Below, one piece after another: positions 16,212 through 56,859 of a stretch of 64,000 bases of DNA. A model generated the notes under the pieces. That model made no database searches, was not told where the DNA came from, and saw only the letters and a list, made by a program, of their open reading frames with translations. A program made the translations under genes and the position numbers. This DNA is from Apostichopus japonicus (lineage: Eukaryota; Echinodermata; Holothuroidea; Aspidochirotida; Stichopodidae), in assembly GCF_037975245.1 (NCBI RefSeq), contig NC_092563.1, positions 828,501 to 892,500 of the forward strand, given 5' to 3'. Every line of letters begins with the position of its first letter. The stretch's first letter is position 1.

Positions 16212-16261
<50 letters not shown>

Positions 16262-16311
16262 AAATTCTCCGGAGAACTCGCATGAGTTCTGAACTTTCCC
16301 GGGTTTCGGCA
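16206..16311 (+). tRNA. tRNA-Phe(GAA)-like gene with 33-nt expansion of the T loop
   Basis: The acceptor strands GCCGAAA and TTTCGGC pair perfectly. The D arm GCTC...GAGC, the anticodon stem TCAGA/TCTGA and loop CTGAAGA (anticodon GAA, 16239-16241) are all intact. A box A match TAGCTCAGTTGG and a box B-like GGTTCAAATTC are present, and TTTT at 16316 could end Pol III transcription. The T stem strands CCTGG and CCGGG are separated by 40 nt rather than 7. The extra 33 nt include a perfect hairpin, AGAACTC-GCAT-GAGTTCT (16273-16290). Metazoan tRNA introns lie after position 37, so this is not an ordinary intron. It could be a pseudogene, a structural variant or a novel small RNA. Confidence 0.75.
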
Positions 16312-16562: not shown

Positions 16563-17181
16563 ATCCGCGTAGCCAGGGCTTTATCATGGGGTGTGTGTTC
16601 CAGGTTGTAATGACCTTAGCGCATCTGGTGGTTTCAGGGCAATATTGTGGGCATTAGAATGAAGTATTAAACCATCTTCAAATGGCATTGGATGCGCACT
16701 AAACAGTCCACAAAAATCACCATTTTGCTACCATTTTATATTTATCAAAATAAAATAAAACTGTTAGCAAACTGCTTATCCACTAGAGAGCCTGTGTAGG
16801 AGAATGTGTAAAAGTATGTTGGCCTGACGTTTCGATCCTAGCAGGATCTTCTTCAAAGGCTAAGTGCCATTTAGCCTTTGAAGAAGATCCGGCTAGGAAC
16901 GAAACGTCAGGCCAACTTACTTTTACACATTTTATATTTATAATAGCCGAATTCAGACTAACGGTCAGTCTTTGAGTGTGCGCGAATCGCGCCTTCAAAT
17001 AACACTTTATAAGAAATTTTAGTAATGTTTGACTTCATTTACATTGAAAAAGTTATCCATTATATTTAACCCCCCCCCCTTATTTCTATCGTCTCCTTTC
17101 TTTCCTTTCTTTTCATTTTTTCGACCCACTAATGGGATGGATTTGGACCCCTTCCCCCCCCCCCCTTGGCTACACGCCTAG
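16563..17181. mobile_element. hAT-like element, probable, containing a nested foldback
   Basis: The 8-mer CTGAGATC flanks the segment at 16555-16562 and 17182-17189. The ends ATCCGCGTAGCCAGGG and (reverse complement of the right end) CTAGGCGTGTAGCCAAGG are related but imperfect. The interior holds C-runs near the right end and the hammerhead-type foldback at 16761-16930. The matching octamers support one insertion, but the imperfect termini leave doubt. Confidence 0.55.
16761..16930. mobile_element. Foldback element with two opposed hammerhead-like motifs (copy 1)
   Basis: The arms 16805-16863 and 16871-16929 are inverted copies of 59 nt with three mismatches and a 7-nt loop (GTGCCAT). The right arm reads TTTGAAGAAGATCC, then GGCTAGGAAC, then GAAACGTCAGG on the plus strand; the left arm carries the same motif on the minus strand. 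A leader (CTGTTAGCAAACTGCTTATC) precedes it and is shared with the copy at 52213. The motif matches minimal hammerhead ribozymes of Penelope-like elements, with a C-to-U change in the first core base. No reverse transcriptase or GIY-YIG frame is nearby. Confidence 0.7.
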
Positions 17182-24948: not shown

Positions 24949-37248
<12,300 letters not shown>

Positions 37249-50648: not shown

Positions 50649-52212
50649 GGTTAGGTTAGGTTTTCTCATGAATTATTTATGAATAAGTAGGAAGTCGATC
50701 CCCTCCTGTAAATTTGTAGAAAGTTGGGATTTGACCTGTAGAAATCAAGCAATCCAGTAGCACGTGTCATGAGGAAGAAGACAATTATAAATTGACCAAT
50801 AGAAAAATAATCAATGAGTTTGGAGCGGGTGGGATGGGGGTGGGTGGGACCTTGATGGGTCGTGGGAGTGGGAATGACCGGTATGGCAAAAAGAAAAATT
50901 GATAGGGTCACCATGCCATTGTTTTTCATGTATTTGGTTTCTGGAAGCCCTAAATGAATTAAAATACTGGTCATTGGTGAAACTGATGAATTAAGAAAAA
51001 AAATGCTTGAGTTCACTGAAGTGAAACTCGCTTTATTTACTACTCTTTGGCCATGTTTACATGAATCTGCCAGTACAAAGTGCATTTGCAAGCATTTCTA
51101 TTAACCACACTTACTCACCCCCACCCCCTAACTCACCATTCCCTTACTCACACCCCCTACGTAACCCACCTTTGTACATGCCACTTGACACAGTTCCAAA
51201 ACAAACAGCATTGCTGTCAAAGTTGCTGTCTAATGTGAAAAATTGAAATTACATGTCTTAACATGGACCTTTTGATTCTTCAATCATTCAACATTGTTTA
51301 TCATCAAACTCTCGTTGCATGTTTGTTTTAATTAATCACCTACAACCTCCTCTTTGTTGAATATTTGCAGATGAGACAAACACATCTTTTCAGTTTGTCT
51401 ATCAACTGATCCTAATTGTTTACTACACTCGTTCTTCGTCTGTTTTGTCAGACTGTTCTATCCCTTCTTAAATGCTGCCCTCATGTCATTCTTTAGGCCT
51501 ACGTATCATAACAGACATGTTGTACCTAAATGGTGCAATGTCCTGTCCAAAACAGTTACTTCATTCCACCCAAACTATGAAATATATGTTTAAAAGTATG
51601 TTGTGTTTATTCCTGTATGATTTTAATTTTTGGGTGGAGGTATGATGGGTTAGTAAGATTCAAAACAAAGTTTTGGTTCATTTATTATTTATAATCATAG
51701 CTGGCTTATAAATAACAATATTTAATTTGTCAAAGTGTGCCCTGCTTGTGAGTAATGATGAGTCTGCCATACATTCTGTGCATACCATTCATTTTTTATC
51801 CTGCAATAAAAAAGGAAATGAAAAACATGAATACTACAATGTGCACACAACGTGGAATTTGTTAGCATTGTTTAAAATAAATAAAATTAAACTTTGGTAT
51901 GAGTATTGAGTACAATATACAGGAAATACATGATACTACAGGCAAATAGTCAAAGCATTAATCATCAACCATCGGGTAGACATGTTTATGTTTAAGAAGT
52001 ATATAGATTTGTTTAGTCTTTTCAGTGTATTTATAACCATTTTCTATAATGAAGACCCACACAATGGAAGCAGGATATGTTTCTTCTGCGGTTTTGCAAT
52101 GTATTACCTTCACACCACTTGTGCAATATATTTACAAATGGTTTCCAAAATGATTATATGTAAAAGGAAGTCACTATTGCTGCCAAATGTACTAGGAATC
52201 AAAATAAAACAA
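50649..52212. other. No gene recognised
   Basis: AT-rich DNA with a GT-rich/GGG patch on the plus strand at 50825-50875 and a C-rich patch at 51115-51170. Open frames are short and lack splice support. Confidence 0.5.
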
Positions 52213-52383
52213 AACTGTTAGCAAACTGCTTATCCACTAAAGAGCCTGTGTAAGAGAATGTGTAAAAGTAAGAGGGCCTGAAGTTTTGATCCTAGCAGGA
52301 TCTTCTTTAGAGGCTGAAGAAGATCCTTCAGCCTCTGAAGAAGATCCTGCTAGGATCGAATCGTCACGCCCTCTTACTTTTAC
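52213..52383. mobile_element. Foldback element with two opposed hammerhead-like motifs (copy 4)
   Basis: The leader ACTGTTAGCAAACTGCTTAT is shared with copy 1. The arms 52261-52319 and 52327-52382 are inverted repeats with about five mismatches over 56 nt. The right arm reads GCCTCTGAAGAAGATCCTGC, then TAGGATCGAATCGTCACGCC: the CTGAAGA core and GATCC/GGATC stem II are intact, GAAAC has become GAATC. The left arm carries the same motif on the minus strand with other changes (CTAAAGA, AAAACTTC). Confidence 0.7.
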
Positions 52384-53775
52384 CCCAGTATACTAGGAAG
52401 AAAGAAAATCGTTTGAATCCTCTTGTTCACACTTGAGATGGTCAGTGTGGCCAATAATATATCAGTAAGTATGCCAGATCTAGAAATTCAGGCTATGAAC
52501 TGGTTAAATACCAAGGTGTTATTTGTCATTTGCCAGTAAAAAACAAAAGGGCACTTTGTATTTCTGACAGTTCAAAATTAATTTTGCTTTGGTATTAATG
52601 CAACAAAAGTGAAAATGAGAATTTAATTTTTAGCCCAGCAGATTATTTTTATGCAATGGCATCTTTAAGCAAGTGGTTAAAACTTGTAAAAGTTTTGGCC
52701 TGCAATTTGGCATATCATATCAAATTCTAGGCCTACATGCTAAACAATTAGTGAGATTTCCAAGTGTTCATACCTTCCAAAATGTTTCTAGACATTGAAG
52801 AGTGTAGTAATTTACAAACATATATTTCAGGGATCCTGATAAGTGCTTTGTTGAAATTTGAGTATAGCAACCATAATTTAAAGGCATTGAAGACTCGCTC
52901 CAAACCGCGTTCCGCGCTTTGAAAAGTTAACTTTCCGTTGCTTGCAAATGACATTTTCTTCTTGACGCTACAAAATGCAGACAGTAATGAAACGTGATAC
53001 CTTGTTATCTTTTATCTAGACCTGAGATGTCCACGCTGCTATGTACAATGTGTTGTGGGTATTGACCGTAGCTGTATGTATTGACTGTACACTAGTGTCT
53101 AATTACCGACGGTAGCAAGCTGTGTGTGTATTTTCTGGGATCGATGGTGGTGCCTAACACTTCTGTTACACCTCATTCGAAACTAGGTCAGATTACTGGC
53201 ATGAGACGTTTCTTTGTGCCGGAGTCTTCACACCCTTTAACTATCTAGTATAAGTAGGAGAAAAACCAATGACTTACCTCCCTCTTTGGCTTCAGTAGTT
53301 CTAACCACCCCCTCCCCTCCCCCCCTCCCTCCCCACACAAGTATATTAAACGTTGCTGTGAATGCCACTAAGAAAGGTAGTAAGCTCACACTGATCACTG
53401 TTGGATTTTATCTATCATGAAACGTATCATGTATTCTTTGTTCTTTGGTATACATATTTATATGGACTAACAGAGATATATTCTGTCTGCTTACCAGAGC
53501 ATCTCTGTTGAATTGAACTTATTTTTTTTTTTTTCATTTATTTCACACAAATTTTGCCCCCTTCTAACAATAGTATTAATAATAATAATATGTGAGTCAA
53601 TTGTTAATATGTCCAGGCTTGTACCTTGCTTACAACTTGGAATAGTGGAATACCATATACTAGTCCAAGAATTATTATCCAAACACAATTTGATGAATAA
53701 ATAAATATTACAATAAGTGAAAATGACTTTCACACTGTACCAAGTTACAAATGCCTCCATATTCATATGAGGTAA
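52384..53775. other. No gene recognised
   Basis: Contains a C-rich patch at 53305-53335 and the probable old repeat at 52475-52560. No coding or RNA gene was supported. Confidence 0.5.
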
Positions 53776-53852: not shown

Positions 53853-54895
53853 TCAATGATGATGTTTTAGAAACAATTGAGGGGGTGGGGGAGGGGGAAT
53901 GAGAACATTTGTTATCCACATGTTATACTATACGTCAGCCAGCAATGCAGTCTTCACACTGCTATTATGTCTGTTGTGGTAACTTCTTAAAAATGTAAAA
54001 CAAACTGCCATTGCTTTGACAATCTAAAGAGAAAAATGAAAGTTGTAGGCTTCTAAAAATGAGCACATCATCTCCATTGAATTTTGTATTGCTTGTTATT
54101 GGTTTTCAGTACTGTTATGAAATTTCTGTCACAGAGAGATGCATTGCTCTTGATATATATGTAGCAGGCTACTCCTGGAATGGTGAGATGAAAGTACTGG
54201 CAGTACTTCAAATGCATTGGCTCAAAAGAAAAAATCCCTCTCCCCTCCCCCTCCCCCACCCCTACCTTTCTGAGAGGTGCCATAGTTTTTCTTAGTTTAT
54301 TTCATCTTAACATGAATTGTTACATATTTGCTTTATCTCAGAGCCCTCAGCCTTCTGTCTAAACTTGTTCATTTGATGGTCATATTGTTTAATAACCAAC
54401 AAAAATATATCATAAACTTCTACCCTTTTAATATTTAACAATTACTTCTTAAATGGTTGGTCGTAAATGTCATCTTTTTTTATTTTATTTTTTTACTTCA
54501 GATATGTTCAAAATGACTTGATTCCATTAGTTCAGTGTCAAGCTGAACAAATGCCGACACATGTCAGTTTCATTTTGTGGAGATATTTTTTGGTGAAAAT
54601 GTACTTTCCTTGGAGATTCTGAACCTGCAGTTACATTTAAGGAGTATTTCATTAGGGGACAAATTTTGCGAAAATTTGTAGTAGTAAAAGTTGTCCAAAT
54701 AATTTTCAACTTCAGTGACCATTTTTAAACTTTCTAGCATATATGTGAGGGCAGGATGGATATCCTATAAATGGTGACATTGTTCAGTTAATGTTTTTTT
54801 TTACTCCTCTCTTTGTTCATTGCTCCAATGTTTATAGTTATCTGTCCACCTGTCTAGTTCTAACACTTCATTAAATCTGTTTTCGTTTTCGGTTT

Positions 54896-54953
54896 GCATT
54901 CGAAGAAGATCCTGCACGCCTAGGATCAAAACGTCAGGCCCTCTAACTTTTAC
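54896..54953 (+). mobile_element. Hammerhead-like repeat fragment (copy 5)
   Basis: TTCGAAGAAGATCCTGCACG, then CCTAGGATCAAAACGTCAGG, then CCCTCTAACTTTTACA. Stem II GATCC/GGATC is kept with a larger loop, and the ACGTCAGGCC tail is intact. The core has two changes (CTGAAGA to TCGAAGA, GAAA to AAAA), so it is probably inactive. Confidence 0.55.
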
Positions 54954-56859
54954 ATTAACATAAATCTGGTTAAAAATGGCGTACATGACTACACAAGGTT
55001 TTAGTTAGGTCCATGATTTCCTACCAGCTTAATTGACCAATCAGTTTTGAAGTTGCTCTCGAACGACCTTCGCAAATATGTCTTTTATTAATCCCCCAAA
55101 AAAGCAAACACTTATAACAGTTGCTCTCTTTTCAGATAGGTACTCTTTGCAGTATCAAAGAATCCAAGTATTACAACTGTCATTGCAAAGAATGCTACCA
55201 GCAAATATGTTATCATTGGACTGTACTAAATAGATATCACATGAGCTTCATGAATTTGGAAAGCATTTCCTTTTATGAGCTTGTAACCAGTTGGTGTCAT
55301 GTTGGATTGCTGCAAATCATCCAGTATTATCCCGTTATTATCCCATTATTTTCTTGTTGCCGTGGCAATTTAAGTAGACTGGTGGTAATTACTTCCTTGA
55401 CATTTACCACAATGTATATTACATACATATTGTTGACGACGTGTAATGTACCAGGTCAATATTCACAGAATAAAGACATTATAGAATCATGATGTATTTT
55501 AACAAATGGGGGGGGGGGGGGGGATTTGATGTCGGTTGTGTGTGTGTGTGTGTCATGTGAGTCTCTGGCACAGGAATACACAAAATACTCTGTGAAAGAA
55601 GTACAATTGCTGAAAGCCTAAAAATAATGTGTTTGAGAATCAAAAAATATGGTTTGAATACTGCAAATGTTGGTGGATATGAAAAGAACAGGGAAGGGAA
55701 CAGTACCGTAGCCAGAGAAACCAATTTGGGGAGCACATCAGTGGTGTCCCCTCCCCTGAGGAATGTTTGCTTTTCTCAGGGGGATTAAATGCCAAATGTT
55801 ACACAATTAGGCTATTGTAGGCCTAGGTCATAAAACAAAGAAAATTGATGAAAAACAAAAATTGGGGGGCTATGTGCCTGAAAGGGGAATGGGCCATCAA
55901 GAAAACCCACTACTCAGGCTCATAATTTGGACATAACATTGTGTCAAGGTTGACTGCATACAAAATTTAGAAGTCCATAAGAGTCTAGTGCTATATACTA
56001 TTCTGTTGTTGACTATTTTAATTGGCTGTAATCATGGCACAAAGTAGGGGTGGCTTCAGGGGTGTTAGGGTATGTCCTCCCTGCCCACCTCCCTTTTCAA
56101 TCTCATTTCAAACAAATAGAAGTATCGTTGAAAGCACAAACCTGCATGTAAACTTAATTGTAGTGCACCTAATTTATAACCAAAGCATCCATCAAAATAC
56201 ACCATTTCACATCAGAATGTTTTTTTTTCAATTTCTGTTCCCCCTGTGATTCGAACCTAGACCCCCTCTACATGGGAGTTGGAACCTCAAATGCTCTCCT
56301 ATTTAAAATTGTGGATCCGCCTGTGCAAGCTATGTTATAATGTGAAATACAGTATAATGTGAAATACAACGTGACTATTTCTATGCTTGACTCAAATATT
56401 TCTGATGTTTTGAGCTGTGACAATTAGAAAATGTTGATCAAAGTAGTAACATCTAAAATTTAATAAGTATAGCAATGCATATGCAGTGGAATTAATACAG
56501 TAAACATAATGGTTTAAAATGAGATGATCTGGATAATCCAAGATTAAGATAATAGAACTCTGGATAATGCAGAACTGCTGTATACTCTGTTGTCATATGT
56601 CAATACTTCAATAGTTACATTAGTTACACAGTAAAGATTGCCAGATTAAACCTTGGAAGTAGCTATATTTCTTTCAAAGATAATACATACCATATAATCT
56701 ATGGTTGCTTTTTGCTGATAATGGTATTTATATTACTGTTATCTAAGCCTACTGATTAAAGAAACAAAGGGACTGTTTTTGAGCCTTGAACCAACTGCAG
56801 TTCTTGAAGGTTATCATGATCAAGCGATGACATTGTGGATGGGAATATTAAATGGGATA

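What the first reader, a model, noticed from the sequence alone, without database searches (positions are those of the whole stretch)
16761..16930. Foldback with two opposed minimal hammerhead-ribozyme-like motifs
Seen: 59-nt inverted arms, each carrying [C/T]TGAAGA - GATCC stem II - GAAAC - GTC. The family consensus (from all copies) is GCCT-CTGAAGA-A-GATCC-TGCTA-GGATC-GAAAC-GTC-AGGC. GCCT/AGGC pairs as stem I and GATCC/GGATC as stem II. Stem III has no loop, so ACGT could pair only between two molecules. Known: minimal hammerheads proposed to act as dimers occur in the flanking repeats of Penelope-like retroelements. Inference: these repeats belong to that class. A foldback holding one motif per strand means either transcript direction would carry a ribozyme. 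One extra A after the core departs from the textbook CUGANGA layout.
Basis: partly seen in the sequence, partly recalled or inferred. Interest (0 to 1): 0.72.

Follow-up and report, generated by a model that had tools for sequence, protein, structure and literature searches.

The report
Penelope-type foldback with decayed ribozyme motifs
In a stretch of animal-type DNA, a small hairpin-shaped repeat carries two mirror-image copies of a known self-cutting RNA motif; it looks like a short, decayed leftover of a Penelope-type retrotransposon, and its ribozymes are probably inactive.

Summary
In detail: 16803-16931 is a near-perfect foldback (64-nt arms, 94%, 1 nt apart), each arm with a minimal hammerhead-like motif. 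The window holds 7 motif copies at 5 loci. Four loci have 8-14 bp target-site duplications, so these are insertions; the foldback is really 16746-16927. A second foldback lies at 52199-52390.

The anatomy fits published Penelope-like elements: head-to-head inverted fragments, palindromic junction, optional tail on one arm, short duplications, a hammerhead without stem III near the 3' end.

Working ribozymes in both directions are unlikely: both arms have C3 changed to T; 1 of 7 copies keeps the core, with a damaged stem II. The insert's RNA folds arm to arm (-99 kcal/mol). No Rfam hammerhead model matched. The extra A is in 6 of 6 copies holding that region.

Verdict: a new, decayed member of a known kind. 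Best lead: foldbacks may form anew during insertion.

The parts
16732..16745 (.). left target-site duplication CATTTTATATTTAT of foldback A
   Evidence: exact 14-bp direct repeat with 16928-16941
16746..16802 (-). tail (3' extension) of the left arm, present on one arm only
   Evidence: shared with foldback D at the same place; ends at the duplication
16803..16866 (-). left arm A_L with hammerhead-like motif 16856-16826
16868..16927 (+). right arm A_R with hammerhead-like motif 16878-16908, short 3' end TTTTACA
16928..16941 (.). right target-site duplication of foldback A (its first 4 bases also continue the arm homology, so the border is ambiguous by 4 nt)
26210..26322 (+). single copy B with a diverged long tail; motif 26221-26251, the only one of 7 with the full core, stem II 3 of 5 pairs; no duplication found
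33093..33141 (-). single copy C, 49 nt, truncated inside the core, short 3' end TTTTACACA; duplication CTGTGTATATGTTG at 33079-33092 and 33142-33155
52199..52390 (.). foldback D: tail plus left arm (52262-52319), right arm 52326-52383, 6 nt between arms, 7 unexplained nt at the right end (52384-52390); duplication TACTAGGAA at 52190-52198 and 52391-52399
54880..54960 (+). single copy E, short 3' end at about 54954 followed by 6 nt before the duplication, 5-nt insertion in loop II; duplication TAAATCTG at 54872-54879 and 54961-54968

Best explanation
The foldback is a very short, truncated Penelope-like retroelement insertion: two head-to-head pseudo-LTR fragments, each with a minimal type I hammerhead motif lacking stem III, the left one with the optional tail. 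It was made by target-primed reverse transcription: copying began at two alternative internal start sites on the RNA (short end near TTTTACACA, 18-21 nt after the expected ribozyme cut; long end after the tail, 80-81 nt after it), and the two inverted copies met or folded back about 10 nt upstream of the ribozyme core. Shown by sequence: the family, the duplications, the two 3' ends, the palindromic junction, the decayed cores. Inferred: the enzyme, its priming on both strands or self-priming, and that the motif once served the parent element as a dimer-acting or protein-assisted ribozyme. The present copy is most likely inert as a ribozyme; if transcribed it should form a long double-stranded hairpin.
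For: Duplications at 4 of 5 loci, 14, 14, 9 and 8 bp; shared words at least that long occur in 57 (A), 137 (C), 236 (D) and 401 (E) of 20000 random placements. C and E show that one arm alone can be an insertion. Short 3' ends of A_R, C, D_R and E lie within a few nt of each other; long ends of A_L and D_L coincide. Published match: an optional 30-40 bp tail between two reverse-transcription start sites, start 111-118 bp into an ORF whose ribozyme cut is at 26 (so 85-92 nt after the cut, close to 80-81 here), cleavage and extension of both target strands, a hammerhead with stems I and II (PMC11167929); an inverted pLTR closing the insert, tail on one of the inverted pLTRs, duplications of 8-10 bp in the examples that have one, palindromes at the head-to-head junction (PMC3846280). 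Minimal type I hammerheads without helix III nucleotides by the thousand in many metazoan genomes, some in PLE pseudo-LTRs (PMC7761336).
Against: No coding part of a Penelope element was found: no RT or GIY-YIG domain in 10 of the 17 stop-to-stop ORFs of 120 aa or more. No Rfam hammerhead hit. The tail (about 57-59 nt) is longer than the published 30-40 bp and its predicted fold is no better than shuffles (z +0.98). Insert borders were chosen to abut the repeats, so abutting is by construction. D and E have 7 and 6 nt between the arm end and the duplication that are not explained. C sits close to a tandem array. B has no duplication. In the 43-column block the nearest relative of A_L and of A_R is C, and of D_L is E, not the other arm.
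Confidence: 0.78

Rival explanations
1. A mobile foldback (MITE-like or master foldback) family: one foldback arose once and was then copied as a unit, A and D being two copies of it.
For: A and D share both ends, the one-sided tail and the position of the centre to within a few nt.
Against: At 4 aligned columns the two arms of A agree with each other and differ from both arms of D; 0 columns support left-with-left or crosswise grouping. Single-arm copies B, C, E exist. Duplication lengths vary (8-14 bp), unlike most cut-and-paste DNA transposons (general knowledge). Gene conversion between arms could mimic the 4:0 pattern.
Confidence: 0.13
2. A hammerhead-bearing non-autonomous element of the animal retrozyme type rather than a Penelope fragment.
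For: Small, non-coding, type I hammerhead-like; animal retrozymes exist.
Against: PMC7761336 describes repeats of about 150-300 bp with hammerheads, in invertebrates mostly with a stable helix III; here single motifs without helix III, inverted arms and a one-sided tail.
Confidence: 0.06
3. The hammerhead resemblance is coincidental; the conserved parts serve reverse transcription or are just a palindromic repeat.
For: Only 1 of 7 copies has the full core; extra A; isolated motifs fold no better than shuffles; no Rfam match.
Against: The order stem I - YTGAAGA - stem II - GAAAC - GTC - stem I is present in the family, 0 of 100 shuffles hold the descriptor, and the motif lies upstream of the long end at about the distance (80-81 nt) that separates cut and RT start in the Anolis element (85-92 nt, from the figures).
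Confidence: 0.12

Closest known systems
PAc (Poseidon of Anolis carolinensis), Penelope/Poseidon clade (PMC11167929)
   Same: hammerhead with stems I and II upstream of internal RT starts; optional tail between two start sites; insertions end at these sites; long end 80-81 nt after the cut here, 85-92 nt there (calculated from the paper's 26 and 111-118)
   Different: PAc has an ORF beginning at stem II and a ribozyme that cuts in the presence of its protein; here no ORF was found, cores are decayed, and the tail is longer than 30-40 bp
Penelope families of Adineta vaga (PMC3846280)
   Same: head-to-head inverted pLTRs, palindromes at the junction, tail on one of the inverted pLTRs, duplications of 8-10 bp in several copies
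   Different: those hold an ORF and pLTRs of about 200 bp; here about 60 bp per arm and nothing between; the passages seen do not mention hammerheads (0 occurrences of the word)
minimal type I hammerheads of metazoan genomes (PMC7761336, citing Cervera 2014 and Lunse 2017, neither held)
   Same: lack helix III nucleotides, dispersed in non-coding DNA and in some PLE pseudo-LTRs
   Different: an extra A after the core in 6 of 6 copies here; whether that is common could not be checked

Membership tests
Penelope-like element (non-autonomous or truncated copy) | ORF with RT and GIY-YIG endonuclease in the parent element | not testable with these tools
   no genome held; no such domain in 10 of 17 window ORFs of 120 aa or more
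Penelope-like element (non-autonomous or truncated copy) | insertions flanked by short target-site duplications | tested here: met
   14, 14, 9, 8 bp at 4 of 5 loci; none found at B
Penelope-like element (non-autonomous or truncated copy) | two alternative 3' ends (optional tail) | tested here: met
   short ends in A_R, C, D_R, E; long ends in A_L, D_L; B has a diverged tail
Penelope-like element (non-autonomous or truncated copy) | head-to-head inverted pLTRs with palindromic junction | tested here: met
   A: 1 nt between arms; D: 6 nt; 2 of 5 loci
Penelope-like element (non-autonomous or truncated copy) | AT-rich target sites | tested here: inconclusive
   A's duplicated target is A/T but for one base; C, D and E are mixed
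hammerhead ribozyme (functional) | core CUGANGA ... GAA ... A-U, H17 (motif recalled; CUGAnGA also) | tested here: not met
   in the given foldback both arms have C3 as T; across the family 1 of 7 copies keeps the core (scored by eye on sequences)
hammerhead ribozyme (functional) | match to a curated covariance model | tested here: not met
   none at gathering score in the window, none at E up to 10 in 16700-17000; models that expect stem III may miss the minimal form, and no positive control was run
hammerhead ribozyme (functional) | self-cleavage after GUC | not testable with these tools
   needs RNA work

The most novel reading that the evidence does not exclude
Tiny foldbacks of this kind are footprints of two-sided priming by a Penelope reverse transcriptase: one cDNA starts at the tail site on one target strand, the other at the short site on the opposite strand, and both stop near the 5' edge of the hammerhead, so each foldback records where the RNA template ended and which start sites were used.
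Probability: 0.35. Interest if true: 0.5.

Novelty: new member of a known kind. Interest (0 to 1): 0.33.

Why it matters
How Penelope elements come to have inverted repeats is open in the papers seen: self-priming was hypothesised in 2013 (PMC3846280) and cleavage and extension of both target strands was reported in vitro in 2024 (PMC11167929). ORF-less foldbacks with readable ends, duplications and subfamily markers on each arm offer a simple genomic test between the two. As a ribozyme the locus itself is unremarkable.

Tried and rejected
Rejected: a microRNA reading. The Rfam hits to mir-4650, mir-368, mir-567 and other families lie below their gathering scores and most follow from the long hairpin. 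Rejected: a DNA transposon with duplications of fixed length (lengths vary, single arms are insertions too).

Led nowhere: exact pattern in IMG/VR, 0; looser hammerhead pattern in IMG/VR, 56 stretches, of which 2 of 56 pair 5 stem II positions in a row and neither of these has a stem I pair next to the core, so they look like chance; family patterns in genome contigs, 0 and 0; tail pattern in IMG/VR, 0. These collections are viral or prokaryotic, so the zeros say little about animals. Whether the extra A is usual in Penelope hammerheads could not be settled: Cervera 2014 and Lunse 2017 are not held (the DOI tried was recalled and wrong, the right one appeared). A hairpin in the tail was looked for and is not significant. 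ACGT pairing between two molecules was not modelled.

Full report
What is there. The window looks like animal DNA: Pfam finds an anoctamin domain and parts of a class I tRNA synthetase, among them the leucyl-tRNA synthetase editing domain, on separate ORFs as in an intron-bearing gene. At 16803-16931 lies an inverted repeat with 64-nt arms, 94% complementary and 1 nt apart. Each arm reads, in its own sense, GCCT-TTGAAGA-A-GATCC-NGCTA-GGAWC-GAAAC-GTC-AGGC. The pattern is beyond chance.

A family of insertions. BLAST inside the window gives five loci: foldbacks A (16746-16927) and D (52199-52390), and single arms B (26210-26322), C (33093-33141) and E (54880-54960). A profile built from the 7 arms recovers those 7; the next match has E 0.83. 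Direct repeats of 14, 14, 9 and 8 bp flank A, C, D and E; B has none of 6 or more. Shared words at least that long occur in 57, 137, 236 and 401 of 20000 random placements. The borders were set to abut these repeats, so only the word length is a test; C also lies close to a tandem array, and D and E have 7 and 6 unexplained nt between arm end and duplication.

Two 3' ends. In hammerhead sense A_R, C, D_R and E end around TTTTACACA, 18-21 nt after the C of GTC. A_L and D_L run on through a shared tail ending CTAACAGTTTTRTTTTATTTTG, 80-81 nt after that C. B carries a diverged tail with a 7-nt insertion. This resembles the optional tail of Penelope-like elements, which in the Anolis element PAc lies between two reverse-transcription start sites; there the preferred start is 111-118 bp into an ORF whose ribozyme cut is at 26, that is 85-92 nt after the cut (PMC11167929; main text section read in full, other passages). 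Penelope families of Adineta vaga have inverted pLTRs, a tail on one of the inverted pLTRs, duplications of 8-10 bp in several copies (others have none), and palindromes at the head-to-head junction (PMC3846280, passages only). Foldbacks A and D show this layout with the coding body missing.

How the foldbacks formed. Aligning the four foldback arms gives 44 invariant columns, 4 where both A arms agree against both D arms, 0 for either other two-two split, 9 with single differences or other patterns, and 2 gapped columns. So either each foldback was made from its own RNA subfamily, or its arms have been homogenised since. Against a simple sister-arm picture, in a 43-column block A_L and A_R are each nearest to C (1 and 2 differences; 3 to each other), D_L is nearest to E (2; 4 to D_R), and D_R is equally far (4) from D_L, C and E. 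That fits two subfamilies, A arms with C and D arms with E, rather than a special tie between arms. The centres lie 9-12 nt upstream of the core in both foldbacks, which could mark the end of the RNA template or of the cDNA; with n of 2 this is weak. Self-priming (hypothesised in PMC3846280) and extension of both target strands (PMC11167929) both fit.

Ribozyme status. Core scored by eye on the sequences printed, with numbering recalled: A_L and A_R have C3 as T, and A_R one stem II mismatch; B keeps the core but pairs 3 of 5 in stem II; C is cut off inside the core; D_L has changes at G5, G12 and the G of stem III; D_R has the A of the stem III A-U pair changed and a stem I mismatch; E has changes at C3, U4 and G12. 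So 1 of 7 keeps the core and 0 of 7 have core and stem II intact. Single changes do not prove loss: PMC10085705 (passages) reports that A-U to U-A in stem III cut activity at least 500-fold in an engineered sequence but occurs in working natural ones. PMC11167929 reports that C3G abolishes cleavage, that PAc's ribozyme cuts only with protein added, that ribozyme mutants still insert in vitro, and that no RNA reads begin or end at the cut site; the effect of C3 to U is not taken from a call. The extra A after the core is in 6 of 6 copies that hold the region, so it is a family trait. The insert as RNA folds arm to arm at -99.4 kcal/mol against a shuffle mean of -39.0 (z -15), while isolated motifs fold no better than shuffles. 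In Drosophila virilis, siRNAs of Penelope were thought to come from such long inverted repeats (PMC3136932, passages); the same fate is plausible here.

Limits. The host genome is not held. The ORF test covered 10 of 17 ORFs of 120 aa or more; the 7 left out are one antisense to the anoctamin ORF, five in CT-rich repeats and one around a TAA repeat. Rfam models may miss hammerheads without stem III, and no positive control was run. Statements on Cervera 2014 and Lunse 2017 rest on passages of later papers (PMC7761336; PMC6466107; PMC11722881). PMC6431247 was seen in passages on Terminons. Whether hammerhead foldbacks of this kind are already in print was looked for, in an open-licence library that lacks the two key papers, so I claim no priority.

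Noticed in passing
16213-16273 (+): tRNA-like sequence just above Rfam's gathering score (32.1 vs 29 bits) that ARAGORN with bacterial settings does not call; perhaps a SINE head or pseudogene.
   Followed up: partly
26210-26355: Copy B ends about 31 nt before a pyrimidine-rich tract and CAG that look like the splice acceptor of a leucyl-tRNA synthetase exon, so it sits at the end of an intron (sequence; gene matches).
   Followed up: no
32515-33055: Tandem array with periods near 64 and 130, ending just before copy C; the 14-mer duplicated around C is GT-rich like its units.
   Followed up: no
52305-52346: The centre of foldback D holds a further GAAGAAGATC, giving a 21-nt direct repeat around the palindrome centre; it may be a trace of slippage at the turn.
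   Followed up: no
35816-36447: Long CT-rich minisatellite with strong GC skew after the last synthetase ORF.
   Followed up: no
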